Positions 18,949 through 39,930 of a stretch of DNA of 64,000 bases are shown here, one piece after another; positions within the stretch are counted from its first letter, which is position 1, and each line of letters opens with the position of its first letter. The DNA is from Ahaetulla prasina (taxonomy: Eukaryota > Chordata > Lepidosauria > Squamata > Colubridae). The stretch lies in assembly GCF_028640845.1 (NCBI RefSeq), contig NC_080539.1, positions 103,318,554 to 103,382,553 of the forward strand. The letters run 5' to 3'. The translations under genes were made by a program, and so were the position numbers. The notes beneath the pieces are model-generated. The model had not been told where the DNA came from and ran no database searches. It saw nothing but the letters and a program-made list of their open reading frames with translations.

Positions 18949-19137
18949 TGTAATGTATTTGAATTTTAGGAGGGAAATTTGAGCGGGGAAAATGCACATT
19001 GCTGATTGGCTGATGCCTTAGCCAAAATACTATTTAAAGAGGGGTTTTTGCCTGTTGGCTTTTGCTGGGATCACAATAAACTAAAGAACTGTTGTCACTT
19101 GTATCGTCTCTTGCCTCTTCATTGCCCGAACTTAACA
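18949..19137 (+). repeat. 5' LTR of gypsy element 1
   Basis: TGTAATGTATTT...CCGAACTTAACA, 189 bp. TATTTAAA at 19031 is a TATA-like box and AATAAA at 19075-19080 a polyadenylation signal, so U3-R-U5 organisation is plausible. Six differences from the 3' LTR. Confidence 0.95.
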
Positions 19138-19156
19138 TTGGCGATGAAGGTGGGAT
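19138..19156 (+). promoter_or_regulatory. Primer-binding site of gypsy element 1
   Basis: TTGGCGATGAAGGTGGGAT directly follows the 5' LTR, where minus-strand DNA synthesis is primed. I cannot name the complementary tRNA with certainty. Confidence 0.6.
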
Positions 19157-19238
19157 GTTGAAGGCAGTGAGACAGGAAAAGAGCTGAAGGAGCAACTTAG
19201 TTTCAACCCCAGCCAGTATCAAGAGCGGATACATAGCG

Positions 19239-19901
19239 ATGTCTAGCTATACGCCGCCAGCGCCATTCGACCCAGCCAAGGAGAAATGGGGGTCGTACAT
19301 GGCTCATTTTGAGTGTTTCCTTGAGGCGAACGAACTGCAAGGAGTATCGGATAATCGGAAGCGCGCTTACTTCCTGAGCCACTGTGGGCCAGAAGTCTTC
19401 GATACCGCCGAATCGCTGTTGGAACCAACGCCTGTACAATCGGTGCCATGGCAAACGCTACAGACGACGCTACGAGCACACTACGCGTCGGTGCCATCGA
19501 AGTTTGTACAACGGTTCGAGTTGAGGCAAAGAGTTCAGCGAGAGGGCGAATCGATAAGCGTGTACATGGCCGCATTAAGGAAAGCCGCAACCCACTGTGA
19601 GTATAGAGACTTGGAGGACTCTTTATTAGAACAACTCATTTGTGGGGTCAGGGACATCCGACTACAGAGGCGGCTGCTGTCAAAAAGCAACCTAACCCTG
19701 GCGATAGCCCTGGATGAGGCCGGGCACACGAGATGTCCACCAAAGCGGCGGAAACCTTACAAAAGCCAAACACGCCGAATGCCGCGGCGAAAGCAACGCC
19801 AGTCCACAGCAAAGAAATCCAGGCCGAATCAGACAGTGAAGAAGAGGAAGAGGTTTTCTACACCAGGAGGCTGGAGAGAGGTGACCGGGACGAGTGCGTG
19901 A
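19239..19901 (+). pseudogene. gag: Gypsy gag (N-terminal and capsid-like part), frame broken
   Basis: The frame starts MSSYTPPAPFDPAKEKWGSY at the first ATG after the primer-binding site. Its first 160 or so residues look like a retrotransposon gag domain: helical, with HFECFLEANEL, an AYFLSHCGPEVFD block and FELRQRVQREGESISVYMAA, the pattern of the retrotrans_gag family, which forms the particle. After about 19720 this frame turns into low-complexity Lys/Arg-rich sequence, while the neighbouring frame takes over with zinc knuckles. So the end to 19901 is probably out-of-frame translation after a one-base loss near 19722. In the family gag and pol often share one frame. Confidence 0.85.
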
Positions 19902-22165
19902 GTTGCGGAGGCCAACACCAACGACAGAATTGCAGGTTCAAAGACGCGATTTGTCAGCGGTGTGAAAAGAAAGGACACATAGCTCAGGCCTGTCGAGCCT
20001 CCCAACCTTCCCGCCAAAAATTCAAACCAGCCAATCAACAGGGCGCCGGTTCAGCGAAGCAGCCAGAGATTGGCCAGTTCAAAAAAGGCGTGAAGTCGAA
20101 TCACACCACTGTGCGAGTGGGCCACGCATCGACACGACTAGAAAAGAAAATATTCACTAAGACCTACATCGAAGGAGTGCAGTGTAAAATGGAGGTGGAT
20201 ACCAGCTCATCAATCACGATTATGTCCTGGGACACGGTTGCACAGGACCTGCCAGAAGTCGCGAAACGACAGCTGCAACCCCAAAAGCTGAGAGTGCAAG
20301 ACTACCAGGGAAACCGGATCCCCGTTAAAGGAGCCACAACGGTCAGAGTAAGATATGGACAATTCAAGAAAACCCTGCCGATCACCATCATTGATGGAAA
20401 CCTGCCCAGTTTACTGGGACTGGACTGGTTTCGAGCCCTAAGAATGGGCATAACCGGGATCCACAGCAATGGAGTCAACCTGAAGGACGAATTGTTGAAG
20501 GAATTTGAGGACGTTTTTCAAGACAGCCTGGGCAAGTACGTGGGGACCCCCATATCATTCAGTTTAGACCCCCAGGTAGTTCCCATTAGATTAAAAGCTA
20601 GGAGAGTTCCGTTCGCTCTCAAACCCAAGGTAGACAGGGAATTAGACAAACTAGTAGACCAAGGAATACTAGTCCCTGTCGACCATGCAAAATGGGAGAC
20701 ACCGATAGTGACACCAGTCAAACCAGACGGATCGGTCCGGATTTGTGCTGATTATAAGGCAATGCTTAACAGGGCATTGCAGAAGAGTGCTTACCCTGTC
20801 CCCATAGTCCAACATTTGTTGCATTCATTAGGACAGGGACAGGTTTTTGCCAAACTAGACCTGGCTCAAGCATACCAACAACTACCAGTTGACAACGAAA
20901 CGGCCGAAGCACAGACGATTGTCACACACCGGGGCACTTTTAAATGCACTCGACTTCAGTTCGGAGTTAGTGTAGCCCCCGGATTATTCCAAAACCTAAT
21001 GGAACAGCTCCTACAAGGTCTACCAGGAGTAGTTCCATATTTCGATGATGTACTGGTATCAGCAGAAAACTTGGAAGAATTAGGGGTCAAATTGCGGAAG
21101 GTTTTGGGCATTTTCAGGTCTGCGGGGCTTAAGGTTAAACTCAACAAATGCCAGATAGGAGTTGAATCTGTAGAATTCTTGGGTTACCGGATAGACAAGG
21201 AAGGCATCCACCCAACCGAGAGCAAAGTGCGAGCAATTAGAAAGGCTCCAACCCCAAAAAACAAAACAGAATTACAAGCATTTTTGGGGCTTGTAAACTT
21301 CTATGCGGTATTTTTAAAAAATAAGGCAACGGTAGCCGAACCGCTACATAAACTGCTAGTGAAAAAATCTGTTTGGACTTGGGGCAGGGTTGAGGCTAAG
21401 GCATTTGAAGAAGTTAAGAACCTCTTGTCCAGCGAGAGCCTTCTTATTCAGTACAATGGGACATTGCCACTGGTACTAGTTTGTGATGCAACACCTTATG
21501 GGGTAGGGGCTGTCCTCAGCCACAGGTTACCGAATGGTTCAGAAGCCCCTATCGCATATTTTTCCCGCACGATGTCTGCAGTGGAAAGGAACTATAGCCA
21601 ACTAGACCGGGAAGCCCTGGCTATAGTTTCTGGGGTTAAAAAATTCCACGAGTACCTGTTTGGGCGGCAATTTGAAATAGTCACAGACCACAGACCTTTA
21701 TTGGGACTCTTGGCGGGGGACCATCCAACACCGGTTGCGTTATCACCCAGGCTGACCCGTTGGACTATTTTCCTGGCAGCATATTCGTACCAACTGTCTC
21801 ACCGACCGGGCAAGGACTTGGGACATGCGGACGCTTTAAGTAGATGCCCATTGCCAGAGACTATTGAAAACCCGACCCCAGGGACGCCTGTCTTGTTAAC
21901 TGACTCTTTGGACTCTGGCCCAGTCACATCCACGGAAGTGACTAGGGCATCTTACAAAGATATTATTGTGAGAACTGTGATTGGTTGGGTGCAGAGGGGA
22001 TGGTCCGCTGCACCGGGGGATCATTTCAAAGAGTTTACAAAGAAGCGTTCGGAACTGTCGGTACAAGGGGGTTGTCTGTTATGTGGGGGGATAGAGTGGT
22101 TATTCCGGAGAAATTATGAGGGCATGTGTTGGAGCTATTGCATGTGGGCCACCCAGGGATTGTGA
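19733..22165 (+). pseudogene. pol: Gypsy gag-pol: zinc knuckles, protease, reverse transcriptase, RNase H
   Basis: The 810-codon frame has, in order: two zinc knuckles (C55-C58-H62-C67; C74-C77-H82-C87); an aspartic-protease region in which the active-site triplet reads D156-T-S instead of the usual D-T/S-G; reverse transcriptase with FAKLDLAQAY (D376) and YFDD (436-439); RNase H with D585, E627 and D652 and the closing HADALSR. The start at 19733 is the first ATG after the gag frame break, not a proven start. Past about residue 780 the frame leaves pol because of an indel near 22085; the tail to 22165 is out of frame. The reverse transcriptase and RNase H part looks otherwise intact; the protease substitution should inactivate processing. 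Confidence 0.92.
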
Positions 22166-22767
22166 GGATGATAAGCCTAGCGAGAAGTTATGTGTGGTGG
22201 CCACAAATGGATAAAGATATTAGCGACCGGGTAGGGAAATGCCAAGCTTGTCAGGAATCAAGGCCACTACCCCCAACAGCCCCCATCAGGGAATGGGAGA
22301 AACCCCAGGGTCCTTGGTCCAGGATCCACATAGATTTTGCCAGGCTGTTCCATGGGCAGACCTTCTTAATTGTGGTAGATGCCTACTCGAAGTGGTTAGA
22401 AATTTTACTCATGAAAACCACAACAGCGGAAGCCGTCATCACAGTCTTGAGGCATCTTTTTGTGACACACGGGTTGCCCGACACTCTAGTATCCGATAAC
22501 GGCCCACAATTCACGGCCACCCAGTTTGAGGGGTACTTGGCAGGAGAGGGCATCCGACATGTCCTCTCGGCACCTTTCCACCCAGCGACGAACGGACTTG
22601 CAGAACATTTCGTACGCAGTGCCAAGGAAGCGCTATCTAGAATTAGCCCAGGAGATTGGCAATCCAAAATTGATACCTTCTTGGCAGTCCAACATAGAAC
22701 TCCCTTTGTAACCACCAGCCGCAGCCCATCGGAGTTATTAATGGGTAGAAGACTCCGGTGCCCCTAG
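22126..22767 (+). pseudogene. pol: Gypsy integrase core
   Basis: The 213-codon frame resumes pol after the break near 22085; an in-frame TGA at about 22115 also separates it. It carries an HHCC zinc-binding module (HVGHPG and CQAC) and a DD35E core: HIDF, VSDNG and the Glu of GLAE, with exactly 35 residues between the second Asp and the Glu. The HIDFA motif is followed by RLF where element 2 has GPF, perhaps damage. The frame ends at a TAG caused by a one-base shift near 22760. Confidence 0.9.
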
Positions 22768-23294
22768 ATTGGTTAAACCCAACATACTCCCCTGATGGGT
22801 ACCAAAGCACGAAGGGAAAAACCAGAACAATGACAACAGGTGACCCGGTATGGGCACATAACTATAGTGACGGGCCAGCGTGGCTAAGGGGAACAATTGT
22901 AGGAGTGACGGGCCCAAAGTCATACTTAGTGGACATGGGGGATGGCAGAGTGTGGAGACGCCACATAGATCAATTAAGAAAAAGAATACAAAACAATCCA
23001 GAAACCAAACAACCAGACCCTGACTACCAAATATTTGAACCAACAACTAGCTCAACCCCAAGGCGATCGGAGGACTTAGCTGAGTCTGAAGAAGTCCAGA
23101 GACACCAACCGGTTCCTCCAGAGGACAGTAGGGACGACTCTGCCAATAATCCAGGGCCAGAGGGCCCAGAGGAGGAGCTGGGAGGAACAAACAGTCCCTC
23201 CGACCAGCTCGACTCACTCCCAGGGAATGAATTGCGCAGGTCAGAAAGAGTTAGGAGACGCCCTGTCTACCTGCGTGACTACGTGGAGAAATAA
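22758..23294 (+). pseudogene. pol: Gypsy integrase C-terminal region
   Basis: This frame continues integrase after the shift near 22760. It has a GPY/F-like module (TGPKSYLVDMGDGRVWRRHI at about residues 50-70), a DNA-binding part of gypsy integrases. An acidic and Pro-rich tail follows, ending VYLRDYVEK before TAA at 23292-23294. The same ending occurs in element 2, so it is the native pol end. No chromodomain is seen. Confidence 0.88.
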
Positions 23295-23322
23295 CATGCA
23301 AATATTATGTAAAAAGTGTTCT

Positions 23323-23335
23323 GGGAGGGGAGGAG
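23323..23335 (+). promoter_or_regulatory. Polypurine tract of gypsy element 1
   Basis: GGGAGGGGAGGAG directly precedes the 3' LTR, the usual site for plus-strand priming. Confidence 0.8.
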
Positions 23336-23524
23336 TGTAATGTATTTGAATTTTAGGAGGGAAATTTGAGCGGGAAAAATGCACGTTGCTGATTGGCTGA
23401 TGCCTCAGCCAAATTACTATTTAAAGAGGGGTTTTTGCCTGTTGGCTTTTGCTGGGATCACAATAAACTAAAGAGCTGTTGTCACTTGTATCGTCTCCTG
23501 CCTCTTCATTGCCCGAACTTAACA
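23336..23524 (+). repeat. 3' LTR of gypsy element 1
   Basis: 189 bp, TGTAATG...CTTAACA, with AATAAA at 23462-23467. It differs from the 5' LTR at six positions by eye. Confidence 0.95.
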
Positions 23525-30272: not shown

Positions 30273-31959
30273 AGCTTCTGAAATCCCACTTGCAAGAAAG
30301 TTGGGAACACTATACAAAAGCACCTCCAAAATCCTGTCACTTAGGCATCTCAGGCAAAAAGGGCCAACACATGAGTATCTTTCAGTTTGGCAGTCTAGTT
30401 GCCGACACAATACATTCATCAAAACAATCAAAGCATTTAATTTCATAAACTGCTCTGAAGCCAAGTTGAAATGGATCTAGAGTTGTAGACAATCCATATT
30501 ACCCAGAAATTCTTATAACTGAGATGTTACCACATGCTCCATCCAGCACTTTGATCGAGAATGAAATATTAGAGATGGACTAGGAATTCTTTAATATTGT
30601 AGAATTCAAGGAGATTTAAAATAACCACACAGTTTAGTCCATGCTTCTTTACAAAATGAAGAAATCATATTTAATTGCATAGAAATATTTCCCATTAGAT
30701 TTATTTTCCTAACTAAATGTAACTCCACCCTTCTTTTGTAATTTTCATGCATTTCCTACATTTGCACTCTTAATTAAGTTGTGCTGATTTTCAAATTGTT
30801 TTTATTGACTGCTGGTTGTCTTGAGAGCATATTACAACAGGACAGGCTATACATATTTAAACAAACTAGCAAACAAGACACTGCATGACACATTAAATGG
30901 CAAAACCAACACATTAATTGGTGTTAACCACTGAATTAACACCACTTGTGCGACCATCATTGGCTGCTAAATCAACCACTTAGAGTAAACAGATCTCAAA
31001 GTAACAGAAGTTGTCCTATCAGTTGGACTTTATTTTGCCTTTCAACGATCCGCTGGACTGTTAACTTAAAGTTTACATCCTTCTGCACAAAAATTAATTT
31101 CTATTTCACAAGTTCCACTCAGATTTTGTGGCTAATAAAATCAAGAATGTAAATACTATTAAATACAAAACAGCCTGCAGCATAACTGTTTCCAAGAAAA
31201 TTACAGATTATATCAAGCCATTCCTTCTACAGAAACTGTGTTTCTTTTTCAAGACAGTGCAGTTCCCTGTACCTTGGAATTTTATTAGGCTAAGAATTTC
31301 ATTCACCATATGTTATAGTATGAGACTAGCTGCAATTGAAAAAAACAACTTTCTGATATATAAGTGAATGATAACCTGATTTTAAATGTGTTTATCTAAT
31401 GAGATAGTAACCTTAATTTACAGCAAATATAAAAACTCCCACTGTTACACTTGGTGCACCTTTTTGGCTAAAAAGGGTGATGCACTGAGATATGCTAATG
31501 AATATGTCTTGGTTTTTTCCAAGTCAGTAATAAAATTTGCATGTGATATTGTGCACAGTAAACTGGGTTATTAGCTTTGAAAATGAGTCTCATAAAATTT
31601 AAATATAGGCTTAAATCATGTTAACTGTCCTGTAGAATTTCTGAGAGGCTTTAAAGCATTGTGTTTTGTTTCCATAGCAGTGAGGCTACAGATGTCATGG
31701 ATTTTTTTGGAGGGTGGGTATCCCAAAATGATAGTGGTTTTTTTATGGGGGGGGGGGAGACTCAGAAGAAAACAGCAAAGATCTCTATCTATCTTCAATT
31801 TACAAAAACTGCGGGCCACAGACTAGATAAAACATAGATATAGAAATTCATATTTTAAAGATTGCTAGTACAAATCGCTGCAACTAACATAGGGGAATAC
31901 TAGCAACGTGTCCTATAAAACTAGTAATCTCTGAGAAGATTATTAATCCAATTGAATTC

Positions 31960-32559
31960 TGTTGAAAGAAATATCCATATGGTTCAGTTCCAAGCCAGGA
32001 GAAAGACACTGGAAACATGGAGGCTGGTTGGAAAGATGGTTTAACGATGAAGCAGAACCACTTGGGTTCTGGGTAGCTGACAACATGGACTTGAGAGTGG
32101 GGTGGCTTTTTATACCTTCTCTTGGGCTTTGCACTTGAACTTCCTGTTCCTGTGGAAGAACATGTATTCTATTGGTTGTTGTAGCGCTCATAGCTGGCTC
32201 TATAAGCTGTCTGAGCTAAGTTTGTTGAAGTTTGGAGGGTGATGCAATGTCCTTAGGAGATTGTGCAATGTGGTGAGCTCTGCTGCTAGATGGTAGTAGG
32301 TTAATCCTATTATGTCCTGAAGGGTTGTGTCTTAATCCCATCACCCTGGAGCTGAAGGTCTTTTGCTTTGTAGATAGGCTGGCCCAGTCTTTCTCAATGG
32401 GCACAAAATATCTGCTGGTGGGAGGGAGGGAGTTGGGGTTCTGAGTTACTGTCTTCCTTAAGGTTTTAATTTCTCTTTTAGGGGAAATATTTTATCCTGC
32501 CTTTTTTAATATTTCTCAAAATATTTCATTCTTCTAGGAAAGTGGGGTAGCTTCCCACA
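31960..32559 (-). repeat. Solo ERV-type LTR (600 bp)
   Basis: On the minus strand it starts TGTGGGAAGCTACCCC and ends ATATTTCTTTCAACA. It has a TATA-like GGTATAAAAAG, and its 3' part (CATGTTTCCAGTGTCTTT, TTGGAACTGAACC) aligns with the LTRs at 32.7 and 38.6 kb. No internal retroviral sequence adjoins. The assignment to a retrovirus-type LTR is by structure only. Confidence 0.7.
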
Positions 32560-32671
32560 GTTCTGTGAAAAAAAAATAAAACAATTCATTTCTCTTGTAT
32601 TTGTGTATCTAAAGTATATCCTATCATCCACTCAGTTGTTCCTTGACTTCCAGTTAAAACTACTAAGCTTG

Positions 32672-33132
32672 TGTGGGAAGTTAGCACCCACCCCTCTCCT
32701 AGGAAAATGAGATATTTTAGAAAATATTAAAAGGGCAGACTATTTCCCCTAAAAGGGAGGCAGAAACTTAATTCCCCCACCTTTGTCAATGGACTATTAA
32801 GGCCCGGGCGAAGCCATAGTAGGGATTGCCCAAAGCCCTTTCATTACATCATCACCCAGCAAGAGTCAACCAAGCCTGGGATTTAAAAGACAATCTACAA
32901 AGTTACCCCTGCATGGCCCCACGGGAGTCTGACAACCAATCAGAACACAAGCTCAAATTCAAAAGCCCACAGAGGGCATAAAACCCAGACACTCTTAGCA
33001 TCTCTGCCCTTTTTGCCCAGGATTTCAAGCCATCTGATCCTGTTCATCAATAAACCTTCTTTCCAAGCAACTTCCATGAATCCAGTGTCTTTTCCCCCAC
33101 TTGGAACTGTAACCAGATGGACATTTCTTCCA
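32672..33132 (+). repeat. Solo ERV-type LTR, head-to-head with its neighbour
   Basis: It starts TGTGGGAAGTTAGCACCC, has GCATAAAACCCAGAC (TATA-like), AATAAA near 33049 and CCAGTGTCTTTTCCCCCACT toward the end. It is shorter than the 600-bp minus-strand LTR because a middle segment is missing. The 3' end is approximate. Confidence 0.68.
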
Positions 33133-33353
33133 ACCCTTGCTTACTGTTTTAATGCAAACACAACTTCGAAATCATGTGAAGTCTGGCAAAGAGTTTTTGT
33201 TTTCCTCGTTAGGCGCTCAGAGAACTGGAAGGGTAAAGCGCACCTATTGTTGTTGGCAAAATGGCATCAGATCTGATAGCAGCCTTCTGGGGGAGCCGAA
33301 AGCACAGACTCTCTGTTTTAAAACTGCTTTCTTGTGTTTGATAATCGTTTATG

Positions 33354-33533
33354 TGTTAAGTTCGGGAAGTAACGAGGCTGGAGACCAGGGTAGTGACAAC
33401 AGCTCTTTAATATATGGTGAACCCAGCAACCAGGCTGGGGAAAAAACCTCTCCTTATATACAGTTCTACCGGCGGCTTTAACCAATCAGCAACGTGCTTG
33501 TTTCCCGCCAAAACCATTTAAAGATACATTACA
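33354..33533 (-). repeat. 3' LTR of gypsy element 2
   Basis: On the minus strand TGTAATGTATCTTTAAATGG to CCCGAACTTAACA. It lies directly after CGTTTATG, the sequence that in copy A2 runs on uninterrupted. Confidence 0.88.
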
Positions 33534-33583
33534 CTCCTTCCCCCCAGAAAACACTTTACCCATATTTACATTATATTTACAGA

Positions 33584-35140
33584 TTATTTTTCAACGTAAT
33601 CACGCAAATAGACTGGGCGTCTCCTGACTCTTTCGGACCTGCGCAGTACATTCCCTGGGAGTGGGTCGAGCTGACCGGAGGGGCTGTTTGCTCCTCTCAG
33701 CTCTTTCTCTAGGCCATCCGGCCCTGGATTATTAGCAGAGTCGTCCCTGCTGTTTTCTACTGGAACCTGTGGGCGTCGCTGGACCTCCGGAATTTCAGCT
33801 AAGTCCTGCGAGTTCTCCGGGTTTGAGTCAGCTGTGGAATCAAACATTGTGTAGTCAGGGCCCGTTTCTATTGATTCAGATTGTTCAGCTATGCGTTTTC
33901 GTATTTGGTCTATGTGGCGCCTCCATACTCGGCCGTCCCTTAATTCTACTAAGTATGATTTTGGACCTGTTCTGTTTAGGATTTGTCCTGCTATCCAGGT
34001 TGGGCCTTCACCATAGTTGTATGCCCACACTCGGTCGCCTATGTCCATTTCTCTTGTTTTTCCTATTTCCCCCTTGTAACCCTCCGGCGTATAGTTTGGA
34101 TGTAGGCGGTCTAGGGCGCACCTGAGCTTCGGCCCATTAATAATTCGGCTGGGCTTCTGCGGTTGTGACACAGGGGTTCTGTGTTGGACTGCCAGGAAAA
34201 TATCTATTTTTGTTTGCCAGTCGCCTGGCTTAAGTCTGGACAATGCCTCTTTAGCGCTCCGGACGGAACGCTCTGCAAGGCCATTCGTCGCAGGGTGGAA
34301 AGGCGCCGAGAGGGCATGTCGGATGCCCTCCTCTGCCAAGTATTCTTCAAATTGGGTTGCCGTGAATTGTGGACCGTTATCGGACACTAGCGTGTCGGGC
34401 AACCCATGGGTTACAAATAGGTGCCTTAGGACTGAGATCACGGCCTCGGCTGTCATGGATCTCATGAGAATGATTTCCAGCCATTTGGAGTAGGCATCTA
34501 CTACGACCAGGAAGGTTTGGCCGTGGAAGGGGCCGGCAAAATCAATGTGTATTCTAGACCAGGGGCCCTGGGGTTTCTCCCATTCCCGAACCGGGGCCGT
34601 TGGGGGTAGCGGTCTGGACTCCTGGCAGGCCTGGCATTTCCCTACCCTTTCAGCAATTTCTGAGTCCATTAAGGGCCACCACACATAGCTTCTCGCTAGA
34701 CCCTTCATCCTAACGATCCCTGGGTGACCCTCGTGGAGGAGGTCCAACACCCTTTTCCTCAATTTTTCTGGGATCACCACTCTATCCCCCCATAGCAGGC
34801 ACCCCCCTTGAGCCGACAGTTCCCCACGTTTTTTTACAAATTCTTTAAAACGCTCGCCCGGCGCAGCGGGCCACCCTCTTTGTACCCAACCGAGTACAGT
34901 TCTCAAAGTAATGTCCCGGTATGATGCCCGAGCCACCTCCTTAGATGTGACTGGGCCAGAGTCCAGAGAGTCAATTAACAGTATGGGCGTCCCCGGAGTG
35001 GGGTCTTCGATCGCCCCTGGTAGTGGGCATCTGCTTAATGCGTCCGCATGCCCCAACTCTTTTCCGGGCCGATGCTGCAGTTTGTAGGAATAGGCGGCTA
35101 AGAAGATAGTCCATCGGGTCAATCGTGGCGAAAGTGCCAC
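33584..35140 (-). pseudogene. pol: Gypsy element 2 pol: RNase H end and integrase
   Basis: The 518-codon minus-strand frame begins in RNase H (LTRWTIFLAAYSYKLQ, HADALSR at 31-37), then carries the integrase HHCC module (H136, H139, C169, C172), and the DD35E core D200, D254, E290. TGPKSYLVELRDGRVWRRHI (about 391-410) is a GPY/F-like module; the acidic tail ends VYLRDYVEK. All visible integrase residues are present. Residues about 324-338 do not resemble element 1, and the adjacent frame does, so two compensating indels seem to enclose a short out-of-frame island. The first Met is not a native start. Confidence 0.92.
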
Positions 35141-35449
35141 AGGCGTTGGTGATCGCCTGCCAGTATCCCTAACAGTGGTCTATGGTCTGTCACAATTTCA
35201 AAGTCTCTACCAAAAACGTATTCGTGAAACTTTTTTACCCCTGACACAATAGCTAGCGCTTCCTTATCCAACTGGCTATAGTTCCTCTCTGTCGAGGACA
35301 TCGTTCTGGAGTAGAAGGCTATTGGGGCTTCTGTGCCATTTGGAAACCTGTGGCTGAGCACAGCCCCCACCCCGTAAGGGGAAGCATCGCAGACTAATAC
35401 CAATGGCAATGAGCTATGATACTGAACCAGTAAGCTATCGCTCGAGAGT
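35119..35449 (-). pseudogene. pol: Gypsy element 2 RNase H fragment
   Basis: On the minus strand it carries VLVCDASPYGVGAVLSHRF, DKEALAIVSGVKKFHEYVF and VTDHRPLLG, the core of gypsy RNase H. A one-base loss near 35140 shifts it out of frame with the integrase ORF. At its N-terminal side the open frame runs past 35449 into copy A2 sequence (to 35517), where the residues are meaningless. Confidence 0.9.
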
Positions 35450-37134
35450 AGCTTCTGAAATCCCACTTGCAAGAAAGTTGGGAACACTATACAAAAGCAC
35501 CTCCAAAATCCTGTCACTTAGGCATCTCAGGCAAAAAGGGCCAACACATGAGTATCTTTCAGTTCTGCAGTCTAGTTGCCGACACAATACATTCATCAAA
35601 ACAATCAAAGCATTTAATTTCATAAACTGCTCTGAAGCCAAGTTGAAATGGATCTAGAGTTGTAGACAATCCATATTGCCCAGAAATTCTTATAACTGAG
35701 ATGTTACCACATGCTCCATCCAGCACTTTGATCGAGAATGAAATATTAGAGATGGACTAGGAGTTCTTTAATATTGTAGAATTCAAGGAGATTTAAAATA
35801 ACCACACAGTTTAGTCCATGCTTCTTTACAAAATGAAGAAATCATATTTAATTGCATAGAAATATTTCCCATTAGATTTATTTTCCTAACTAAATGTAAC
35901 TCCACCCCTCTTTGTAATTTTCATGCATTTCCTACATTTGCACTCTTAATTAAGTTGTGCTGATTTTCAAATTGTTTTTATTGACTGCTGGTTGTCTTGA
36001 GAGCATATTACAACAGGACAGGCTATACATATTTTAAACAAACTAGCAAACAAGACACTGCATGACACATTAAATGGCAAAACCAACACATTAATTGGTG
36101 TTAACCACTGAATTAACACCACTTGTGCGACCATCATTGGCTGCTAAATCAACCACTTAGAGTAAACAGATCTCAAAGTAACAGAAGTTGTCCTATCAGT
36201 TGGACTTTATTTTGCCTTTCAACGATCCGCTGGACTGTTAACTTAAAGTTTACATCCTTCTGCACAAAAATTAATTTCTATTTCACAAGTTCCACTCAGA
36301 TTTTGTGGCTAATAAAATCAAGAATGTAAATACTATTAAATACAAAACAGCCTGCAGCATAACTGTTTCCAAGAAAATTACAGATTATATCAAGCCATTC
36401 CTTCTACAGAAACTGTGTTTCTTTTTCAAGACAGTGCAGTTCCCTGTACCTTGGAATTTTATTAGGCTAAGAATTTCATTCACCATATGTTATAGTATGA
36501 GACTAGCTGCAATTGAAAAAACAACTTTCTGATATATAAGTGAATGATAACCTGATTTTAAATGTGTTTATCTAATGAGATAGTAACCTTAATTTACAGC
36601 AAATATAAAAACTCCCACTGTTACACTTGGTGCACCTTTTTGGCTAAAAAGGGTGATGCACTGAGATATGCTAATGAATATGTCTTGGTTTTTTCCAAGT
36701 CAGTAATAAAATTTGCATGTGATATTGTGCACAGTAAACTGGGTTATTAGCTTTGAAAATGAGTCTCATAAAATTTAAATATAGGCTTAAATCATGTTAA
36801 CTGTCCTGTAGAATTTCTGAGAGGCTTTAAAGCATTGTGTTTTGTTTCCATAGCAGTGAGGCTACAGATGTCATGGATTTTTTTGGAGGGTGGGTATCCC
36901 AAAATGATAGTGGTTTTTTTATGGGGGGGGGGAGACTCAGAAGAAAACAGCAAAGATCTCTATCTATCTTCAATTTACAAAAACTGCGGGCCACAGACTA
37001 GATAAAACATAGATATAGAAATTCATATTTTAAAGATTGCTAGTACAAATCGCTACAACTAACATAGGGGAATACTAGCAACGCGTCCTATAAAATTAGT
37101 AATCTCTGAGAAGATTATTAATCCAATTGAATTC

Positions 37135-37734
37135 TGTTGAAAGAAATATCCATATGGTTCAGTTCCAAGCCAGGAGAAAGACACTGGAAACATGGAGGCT
37201 GGTTGGAAAGATGGTTTAACGATGAAGCAGAACCACTTGGGTTCTGGGTAGCTGACAACATGGACTTGAGAGTGAGGTGGCTTTTTATACCTTCTCTTGG
37301 GCTTTGCACTTGAACTTCCTGTTCCTGTGGAAGAACATGTATTCTATTGGTTGTTGTAGAGCTCATAGATGGCTCTATAAGCTGTCTGAGCTAAGTTTGT
37401 TGAAGTTTGGAGGGTGATGCAATGTCCTTAGGAGATTGTGCAATGTGGTGAGCTCTGCTGCTAGATGGTAGTGGGTTAATCCTATTATGTCCTGAAGGGT
37501 TGTGTCTTAATCCCATCACCCTGGAGCTGAAGGTCTTTTGCTTTGTAGATAGGCTGGCCCAGTCTTTCTCAATGGGCACAAAATATCTGCTGGTGGGCGG
37601 GAGGGAGTTGGGGTTCTGAGTTACTGTCTTCCTTAAGGTTTTAATTTCTCTTTTAGGGGAAATATTTTATCCTGCCTTTTTTAATATTTCTCAAAATATT
37701 TCATTCTTCTAGGAAAGTGGGGTAGCTTCCCACA
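37135..37734 (-). repeat. Solo ERV-type LTR in copy A2
   Basis: Counterpart of 31960-32559, with a few substitutions. Confidence 0.7.
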
Positions 37735-37846
37735 GTTCTGTGAAAAAAAAATAAAACAATTCATTTCTCTTGTATTTGTGTATCTAAAGTATATCCTATC
37801 ATCCACTCAGTTGTTCCTTGACTTCCAGTTAAAACTACTAAGCTTG

Positions 37847-38308
37847 TGTGGGAAGTTAGCACCCACCCCTCTCCTAGGAAAATGAGATATTTTAGAAAAT
37901 ATTAAAAGGGCAGACTATTTCCCCTAAAAGGGAGGCAGAAACTTAATTCCCCCACCTTTGTCAATGGACTATTAAGGCCCGGGCGAAGCCATAGTAGGGA
38001 TTGCCCAAAGCCCTTTCATTACATCATCACCCAGCAAGAGTCAACCAAGCCTGGGATTTAAAAGACAATCTACAAAGTTACCCCTGCATGGCCCCACGGG
38101 AGTCTGACAACCAATCAGAACACAAGCTCAAATTCAAAAGCCCACAGAGGGCATAAAACCCAGACACTCTTAGCATCTCTGCCCTTTTTGCCCAGGATTT
38201 CAAGCCATCTGATCCTGTTCATCAATAAACCTTCTTTCCAAGCAACTTCCATGAATCCAGTGTCTTTTCCCCCACTTGGAACTGTAACCAGATGGACATT
38301 TCTTCCAA
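37847..38308 (+). repeat. Solo ERV-type LTR in copy A2
   Basis: Counterpart of 32672-33132. Confidence 0.68.
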
Positions 38309-38564
38309 CCCTTGCTTACTGTTTTAATGCAAACACAACTTCGAAATCATGTGAAGTCTGGCAAAGAGTTTTTGTTTTCCTCGTTAGGCGCTCAGAGAAC
38401 TGGAAGGGTAAAGCGCACCTATTGTTGTTGGCAAAATGGCATCAGATCTGATAGCAGCCTTCTGGGGGAGCCGAAAGCACAGACCCTCTGTTTTAAAACT
38501 GCTTTCTTGTGTTTGATAATCGTTTATGTAAGAGTTTGGAAAATATAAAGTGGAAATTCACAGA

Positions 38565-39096
38565 TCTGGTCAGCCACTATTTGGGATCCCCTCTCCTAGA
38601 AGAATGAAATATTTTAGGAAATATTAAAAAAGCAAAATATTATGCTTCCCTGGATGAGAAAAGGAGAAGCATATTTTTAAAGATAAAGGAGCTCCCTGCA
38701 GCTCCCTGCTCCCCACTTCAGGTCCAGGGCGATGAGATTAAGACATGGCCCTCAGGACATGATAGGATTAGCCCTCTACCCATCTCACCACATGACACCT
38801 GGGAAAATTACATCATCCAGCAAAGCTCAACCAAGCCTGGGACTCAGGACAGCCTACAGAGTTGCCCCTGCAACCCCATGGGAGTCTGTCAACCAATCAG
38901 AATACAAGCTCAAATTCAAAAGCCCAAAGAGGATATAAAACTCAGGCACTCTCATCATCTCTTCCCTTTTTTTCTTATCATCAAGGCCTGTGATCCTGCC
39001 CACCATTAAAAACCATCTTTCTAAGCAGTCTCCATGTTTCCAGTGTCTTTTTCCCCACTTGGAACTGAACCCAGATGAACATTTCTTCCAAAACTA
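38565..39096 (+). repeat. Fifth related LTR, single-copy
   Basis: It aligns with the LTRs in A1/A2: CCTCTCCTAGAAGAATGAAA at the start, CAAGCCTGGGACTCAGGACA in the middle, CAGTGTCTTTTTCCCCACTT and ATTTCTTCCAA at the end. Some middle blocks (GATGAGATTAAGACATGGCC) match only the 600-bp minus-strand LTR. The start is degraded. Confidence 0.65.
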
Positions 39097-39930
39097 TCTT
39101 TTCAGTTATACTATAATTGTTGGATTTGCTTTAAAGAAAAGAAAAACATTATATAGTGTGGGAGAAATGGTACGAATGGCTAGAGGAGAGAGATAAAAGG
39201 CAAGGGAAGATCAAATAAAGAAAATATAGGAGTAGAAATGTAACCACAGATAAGAGGAAGCAGAAAAAACGTAGTTTGTAGAAATGAAATTGGGTACACT
39301 GTTATTTATATGTATATATGTAAATAAATTAATATTAGACTTGTATGTATAAAGGATACATTGAAATAAGGGAGAAAAAATGGGCAAGTAAGAAATGATT
39401 AACCATTGTGAAATTGTTGGAAAGAAACTATTGTTTAAAGATTCTTTTTTGTTTCTTGAAAAATGTTTAATAAAAATTATTTTTTTAAAAAAAGAAAAAA
39501 GAAAAGAAAAAAATGGAAGTTAATGTCTTATCCAATAATTTATCCATTGACTCATCCATCATAGAAATCATTGCATTTATAGTTTCTATGAAGAATGAGG
39601 GGATGGGAGATGGGGATCAGGGCTATATTTGATCACAATGTTGTTCCAGGGCTGGAATTCCCACACCCACCCAAAAAAAAGGAAAAATCCAACAAAGAAC
39701 TGTGGGAGCAATTTTTCTTTAATGGAACGGAATATAATTTAAATTAATCTACCACAATCTTGTAGAATAAGTGTGTTTATTAAACAATTCTTTAACTGTA
39801 TAAGACATAGATATGATTTCTCCTATTTATCACGTTGAAAATAACAGATTGGTGATACTTTGTGGAACAGCTCTGGGAATCACAGCTATGGATCTGATGG
39901 CCAAATATGGCCCTACAATCTCACGGTGCA
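39097..39930. other. Stretch without recognised features
   Basis: AT-rich, no gene. Confidence 0.45.

What the first reader, a model, noticed from the sequence alone, without database searches (positions are those of the whole stretch)
30273..38528. Duplication whose junction lies inside a gypsy element, with the empty insertion site in the second copy
Seen: A1 (30273-33353) and A2 (35450-38528) are almost identical. Between them lies half of a minus-strand gypsy element, with one LTR abutting the end of A1 and an abrupt end in RNase H abutting the start of A2 at about six shared bases (AGCTTC). A2's right end runs through the insertion point uninterrupted. LTR retrotransposons do not normally integrate truncated. 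Inference: the structure joins a chromosome carrying the full insertion to one without it, by unequal exchange in a heterozygote. An assembler stitching two haplotypes would give the same picture, and the small divergence suits either.
Basis: partly seen in the sequence, partly recalled or inferred. Interest (0 to 1): 0.8.

Follow-up and report, generated by a model that had tools for sequence, protein, structure and literature searches.

The report
Half retrotransposon between duplicated host DNA
In a vine-snake genome, half of a jumping element sits between two copies of the same 3,081-base stretch, most likely because only one of its ends was inserted normally and the cell patched the other end by copying neighbouring DNA.

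Summary
The structure is in the assembly to the base: A1 (30273-33353), a minus-strand Ty3/gypsy 3' half (33354-35449) and A2 (35450-38528) with an empty insertion site. The six shared bases at the inner junction are not: the seven best-matching relatives (7 of 7) share only AG with the host. The window lies on the largest scaffold of Ahaetulla prasina (Asian vine snake; Nanopore, wtdbg2). Of 39 relatives examined, 33 have an exact 5-bp target duplication. One (L011) has the window's anatomy: intact 3' LTR end, 5' LTR lacking about 52 bp, and about 1.14 kb of flanking host DNA repeated at the truncated end. This matches the published signature of aberrant retroviral integration, one end inserted by integrase and the other by host repair. 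The element half has 5 private substitutions in 2,096 bp and A1/A2 differ by 14 in 3,081 bp, so insertion and duplication can be the same age. I prefer this one-event reading to unequal exchange in a heterozygote. Against it: the junction overlap is no better than chance, L011's host copies are too alike for its element's age, no old case was found, and no reads were available, so assembly error remains possible.

The parts
30273..33353 (+). A1: host segment, copy next to the intact LTR end
   Evidence: 99.4% to 35450-38528; ends exactly at the LTR terminus
33354..33533 (-). 3' LTR (180 bp) of the gypsy element, complete, terminus CTTAACA
   Evidence: 15 of the 20 relatives fetched with flanks end in the same seven bases, the other five differ by one base
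33354..35449 (-). 3' half of a Ty3/gypsy element: RNase H (cut near its start), integrase zinc-binding and core domains, LTR
   Evidence: Pfam RT_RNaseH, Integrase_H2C2, rve; at most 98.4% identical to other copies
35450..35451 (.). AG: the only bases shared exactly by element and host at the aberrant junction
   Evidence: 7 of 7 relatives against the native host start of A1
35450..38528 (+). A2: second host copy, running through the empty insertion site after 38528

Best explanation
One aberrant integration made the whole structure. Integrase joined the U5 end of the 3' LTR normally to host DNA at the end of A (shown: exact terminus). The other end of the element DNA was not inserted by integrase. 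It was lost back to RNase H (truncation shown, process inferred). Its free 3' end, on the window + strand, then primed copying of host DNA from 3,081 bp upstream of the insertion site on the same or sister molecule (inferred). Copying ran through A and across the still empty site and rejoined the chromosome, leaving A1 - truncated element - A2 - empty right flank. The host duplication is in effect an oversized target-site duplication.
For: The anatomy agrees with aberrant retroviral integration: one normal end, the other often truncated, host DNA duplicated for hundreds or thousands of bp at the aberrant end (PMC5041404, sections 10 and 12 read). The duplicated segment is the host DNA beside the intact end, as that model requires. 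One of 39 relatives examined (L011) has the same anatomy: exact 3' LTR end, 5' LTR lacking about 52 bp, about 1.14 kb of host DNA repeated and abutting the cut end, 3-bp overlap TTA (lengths of the gap and overlap counted by eye). The other relatives show the normal integrase step: 33 of 39 have exact 5-bp duplications and 1 has four of five bases. Dating of the window fits one event: 5 private substitutions in 2,096 bp of element and 14 differences between A1 and A2, rate test P = 1.0.
Against: The junction overlap is only 2 bp, no more than chance gives, while the model usually shows short homology. L011's host copies have no substitution apart from a 52-bp (TC)n length difference, while its element half has 6 private ones (P = 0.012); those copies may be younger, converted or an assembly duplicate. 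In unperturbed HIV infections 0 of 99 and 0 of 85 proviruses were aberrant, so the event should be rare. The A1/A2 differences are unevenly spread (two largest gaps, P = 0.0012, tested after seeing them). No reads were available. No old case with diverged host copies was found. Whether L011's host segment occurs elsewhere in the genome could not be searched (server busy).
Confidence: 0.57

Rival explanations
1. Unequal, non-homologous exchange or template switching between a chromosome with a full-length insertion and one without it.
For: Gives the same end product; explains the empty site in A2; an insertion twice as old as the duplication is not excluded (P = 0.15).
Against: An insertion four times older is unlikely (P = 0.006). 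L011's breakpoint lies within about 52 bp of the element end, roughly a 1% chance for a random position in 4.5 kb. Needs a pre-existing heterozygous insertion plus a rare join between homologues.
Confidence: 0.15
2. Assembly error that strings the two haplotypes (full insertion and empty site) together.
For: The assembly is Nanopore, wtdbg2 with --rescue-low-cov-edges, short-read polished (PMC9999515). A1/A2 differ by about 0.45%, possible for haplotypes. L011's host copies are nearly identical. All four length differences between A1 and A2 are homopolymer indels. False duplications are sometimes joined without a gap through wrongly filled sequence (PMC9516828, passages).
Against: False duplications are most often separated by a gap (PMC9516828, passages); the window holds no N. 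Only 2 or 3 bp are shared at the joins, too few for an overlap. From general knowledge, not tested: a fuzzy Bruijn graph merges copies this similar, so emitting A twice needs a spanning read. No third copy of A or of 273 bp of its left flank was listed in the genome (best 40 candidates scored).
Confidence: 0.2
3. Three steps: an older, larger tandem duplication; gypsy insertion into the first copy; a deletion from inside the element to the start of A2.
For: Yields the same sequence; the private-substitution count is an upper bound for the element's age, so it may be younger than the duplication.
Against: Three independent local events in a short time; does not explain L011's similar anatomy.
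Confidence: 0.06

Closest known systems
Aberrant HIV-1 / ASLV integrations with one integrase-inserted end (Varadarajan et al. 2016, PMC5041404, sections 10 and 12 read)
   Same: One exact LTR end, other end truncated, host DNA duplicated over hundreds to thousands of bp
   Different: A Ty3/gypsy element in a snake assembly, no drug or integrase mutation known; the overlap at the junction is only 2 bp
Normal Ty3/gypsy insertions of the same family in this genome (L009, L010, L012-L028 and others)
   Same: Same or nearly the same LTR termini; 96.7-98.4% DNA identity over the half
   Different: They have two LTRs, about 4.5 kb and a 5-bp target duplication (33 of 39 relatives exact)
False heterotype duplications in assemblies (PMC9516828, passages read)
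   Same: Adjacent near-identical copies in one scaffold
   Different: No gap here; read depth could not be checked

Membership tests
Aberrant one-good-end integration | One LTR end complete and joined to host at its exact terminus | tested here: met
   CTTAACA terminus abuts 33353; 15 of 20 relatives with flanks have the same terminus, 5 differ by one base
Aberrant one-good-end integration | Other end truncated | tested here: met
   Sequence stops in RNase H; 7 of 7 relatives continue
Aberrant one-good-end integration | Host DNA beside the good end duplicated at the aberrant end, far beyond 5 bp | tested here: met
   3,081 bp; about 1.14 kb in L011
Aberrant one-good-end integration | Short homology at the aberrant junction (usual, not always) | tested here: inconclusive
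   2 bp, chance 15.7%; 3 bp in L011
Aberrant one-good-end integration | Insertion and duplication of the same age | tested here: inconclusive
   Window fits, P = 1.0; L011 does not fit well, P = 0.012
Aberrant one-good-end integration | Junctions present in genomic DNA reads | not testable with these tools
   No reads held
Ty3/gypsy LTR retrotransposon | RNase H upstream of integrase; TG...CA LTR; 5-bp target duplication in intact copies | tested here: met
False heterotype duplication | Gap between the copies (usual, not always) | tested here: not met
   No N in the window
False heterotype duplication | Half read depth and one-copy k-mers | not testable with these tools
   No reads held
Unequal exchange in a heterozygote | Full-length insertion allele in the population | not testable with these tools
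   Only one assembly; no third copy of A or of 273 bp of left flank listed

The most novel reading that the evidence does not exclude
Young Ty3/gypsy copies in this snake are completed by host repair instead of integrase in a few per cent of insertions (besides the window itself, 1 of 39 relatives examined shows a kilobase-scale flanking duplication), so that retrotransposition itself makes tandem duplications that annotation pipelines would not recognise as target-site duplications.
Probability: 0.34. Interest if true: 0.65.

Novelty: new member of a known kind. Interest (0 to 1): 0.45.

Why it matters
If real, it carries a repair route known from perturbed retroviral infections over to natural retrotransposon copies in an animal genome, and gives a simple origin for tandem duplications with a truncated LTR element at the seam. 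It also offers a search rule: one exact LTR end, one cut end, host flank repeated. If it is an assembly error, the same rule finds errors.

Tried and rejected
Microhomology-driven join with six shared bases: rejected, relatives' DNA shows 2 bp. Protein evidence had already pointed that way: of 19 relatives at 85% identity or more, 16 have N and 3 have D where the window has K.

A third case, L055 with L076 and L077: its 5' end is missing, but the 249 bp at 89% shared by its flanks do not abut the truncation, so it is not counted. L061/62 has a truncated 5' LTR, but 187 bp of its 3' flank have no second local copy among the 40 matches scored of 78 candidates. L073-L075 has a truncated 3' LTR and a complex, unresolved flank; only the first 114 bp of its 5' LTR were seen. 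L053/54 appears from hit coordinates to be internally duplicated; its 5' end was not examined. L071/72 has a target duplication with one mismatch. L039/40 was counted as exact on the assumption that two unmatched terminal bases belong to its LTR. Flank-against-flank comparison of the 20 copies with flanks gave matches in six (L010, L011, L013, L019, L021, L022; at most three matches per copy were printed); apart from L011 the printed ones are 47-217 bp long and do not abut both element ends, as expected of interspersed repeats.

Frameshifts in the half as a clock: dropped, since only one indel is private and the assembly seems to have Nanopore-type indels in repeats.

Rfam: nothing. Literature: ten searches. 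Those aimed at natural LTR-element cases showed none that I recognised as such by title and abstract start; two searches listed only 20 of 30 and 15 of 107 papers, searches found none. PMC12132167 was seen in passages and not used.

Full report
Observation. A self-comparison of the window shows A1 (30273-33353) and A2 (35450-38528) at 99.4% identity over their whole length. They differ at 14 bases, two of them adjacent, and by four 1-bp homopolymer indels. Between them lies a minus-strand Ty3/gypsy 3' half with RNase H and integrase domains and a complete 180-bp LTR at 33354-33533. A2 passes the insertion point without interruption. A second, more distant gypsy element on the plus strand at 18949-23524 is 76% identical to the half.

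Where it is. The genome tool placed the window at C1:103318554-103382553 of a 1.77-Gb genome in 745 contigs. Contig lengths equal those attached to Ahaetulla prasina proteins and match the published assembly: 1.77 Gb, scaffolds up to 377.63 Mb, scaffold N50 231.95 Mb (PMC9999515, passages and section 18). It was made from Nanopore reads with NextDenovo and wtdbg2 and polished with long and short reads.

Junction. Seven of seven relatives (L002-L008, the best matches) continue GAGAGTAG|GTTTT where the window turns into host AG|CTTCTG. The exact overlap is AG; random joins reach 2 bp or more in 15.7% of trials.

Control copies. I examined the ends of the 39 relatives listed: 20 with flanks, 19 by short end pieces. 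Of the 39, 33 have both LTRs and an exact 5-bp target duplication (19, 14), and one (L071/72) has a duplication with one mismatch. One (L011) repeats the window's anatomy: about 1.14 kb of host DNA directly after the 3' LTR is repeated before a 5' LTR that lacks about 52 bp, with TTA shared at the join, and the left copy runs through the empty site. Two have one truncated end without a shown simple duplication (L061/62; L073-L075). Two are unresolved (L053/54; L055 with L076 and L077). These are the best-scoring matches of 7,949 candidates, so short or badly truncated copies are under-sampled.

Dating. Against the 20 relatives L009-L028, the window's element half has 5 private substitutions and 1 private indel in 2,096 bp. 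A1 and A2 differ by 14 substitutions in 3,081 bp, about 2.3 per kb per lineage; the half has 2.4 per kb. One common age fits (P = 1.0); an insertion twice as old is not excluded (P = 0.15), one four times as old is unlikely (P = 0.006). Private counts are upper bounds for age. LTR pairs of 19 relatives differ by 20 in 3,398 bp (L011 left out because its 5' LTR is truncated). L011 fits one age poorly: 6 private substitutions against none in its host copies (P = 0.012). The A1/A2 differences are clustered, which no model here predicts.

Mechanism. Varadarajan et al. (PMC5041404; sections 10 and 12 read in full; other passages) describe HIV proviruses with one normal end, another end often truncated, and most commonly a host duplication of hundreds or thousands of bp. 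They propose that the free 3' end primes copying of nearby host or viral DNA, followed by recombination, and that the result is a deletion if this happens on one side of the site and a duplication if on the other. The window has the polarity that this needs: the free 3' end is on the + strand and the duplicated segment is the host DNA beside the intact end. The sequence shows the end product; the steps are inferred.

Assembly error. PMC9516828 (passages) reports that false duplications are most often separated by a gap, sometimes joined through wrongly filled sequence, and have half depth. There is no gap here, but depth could not be tested, and this assembler setting rescues weakly supported edges. 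An old case with diverged host copies, which would speak against error for the class, was not found.

Verdict. A confirmed, odd structure in the assembly, best read as one aberrant integration event, with assembly error and heterozygote exchange as live rivals.

Noticed in passing
L011 and L061/L062 (5' LTR): Two copies have 5' LTRs cut at nearly the same place (about position 52-54, at TAAAG) and share the variant GCCGCGGTTGAACTG just after it; in L061/62 the cut end joins an (AAAT)n array.
   Followed up: partly
L073, L074, L075 (C1:145318500-145325840): A copy whose 3' LTR stops after about 11 bp next to a poly(A) run; about 1.2 kb away a solo LTR is followed by the same 51 bp of host DNA as the 5' LTR.
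   Followed up: partly
L053/L054 (C3:162383658-162388408): The hit coordinates suggest an internal tandem duplication of about 1.9 kb within one gypsy copy.
   Followed up: no
window 31961-32560, 32668-33140 and about 38575-39140: LTR-like repeats that share sequence, two of them in inverted orientation inside A; the first has many 80-88% relatives in the genome. Ends judged by eye.
   Followed up: partly
window 30388-33310: The A1/A2 differences are clustered: two stretches of 1,149 and 887 bp have no substitution (P = 0.0012 for the two largest gaps), perhaps gene conversion or haplotype mosaic.
   Followed up: partly
L014, L020: Six private indels each in 2.1 kb of gypsy sequence, possibly unpolished Nanopore errors in repeats.
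   Followed up: no
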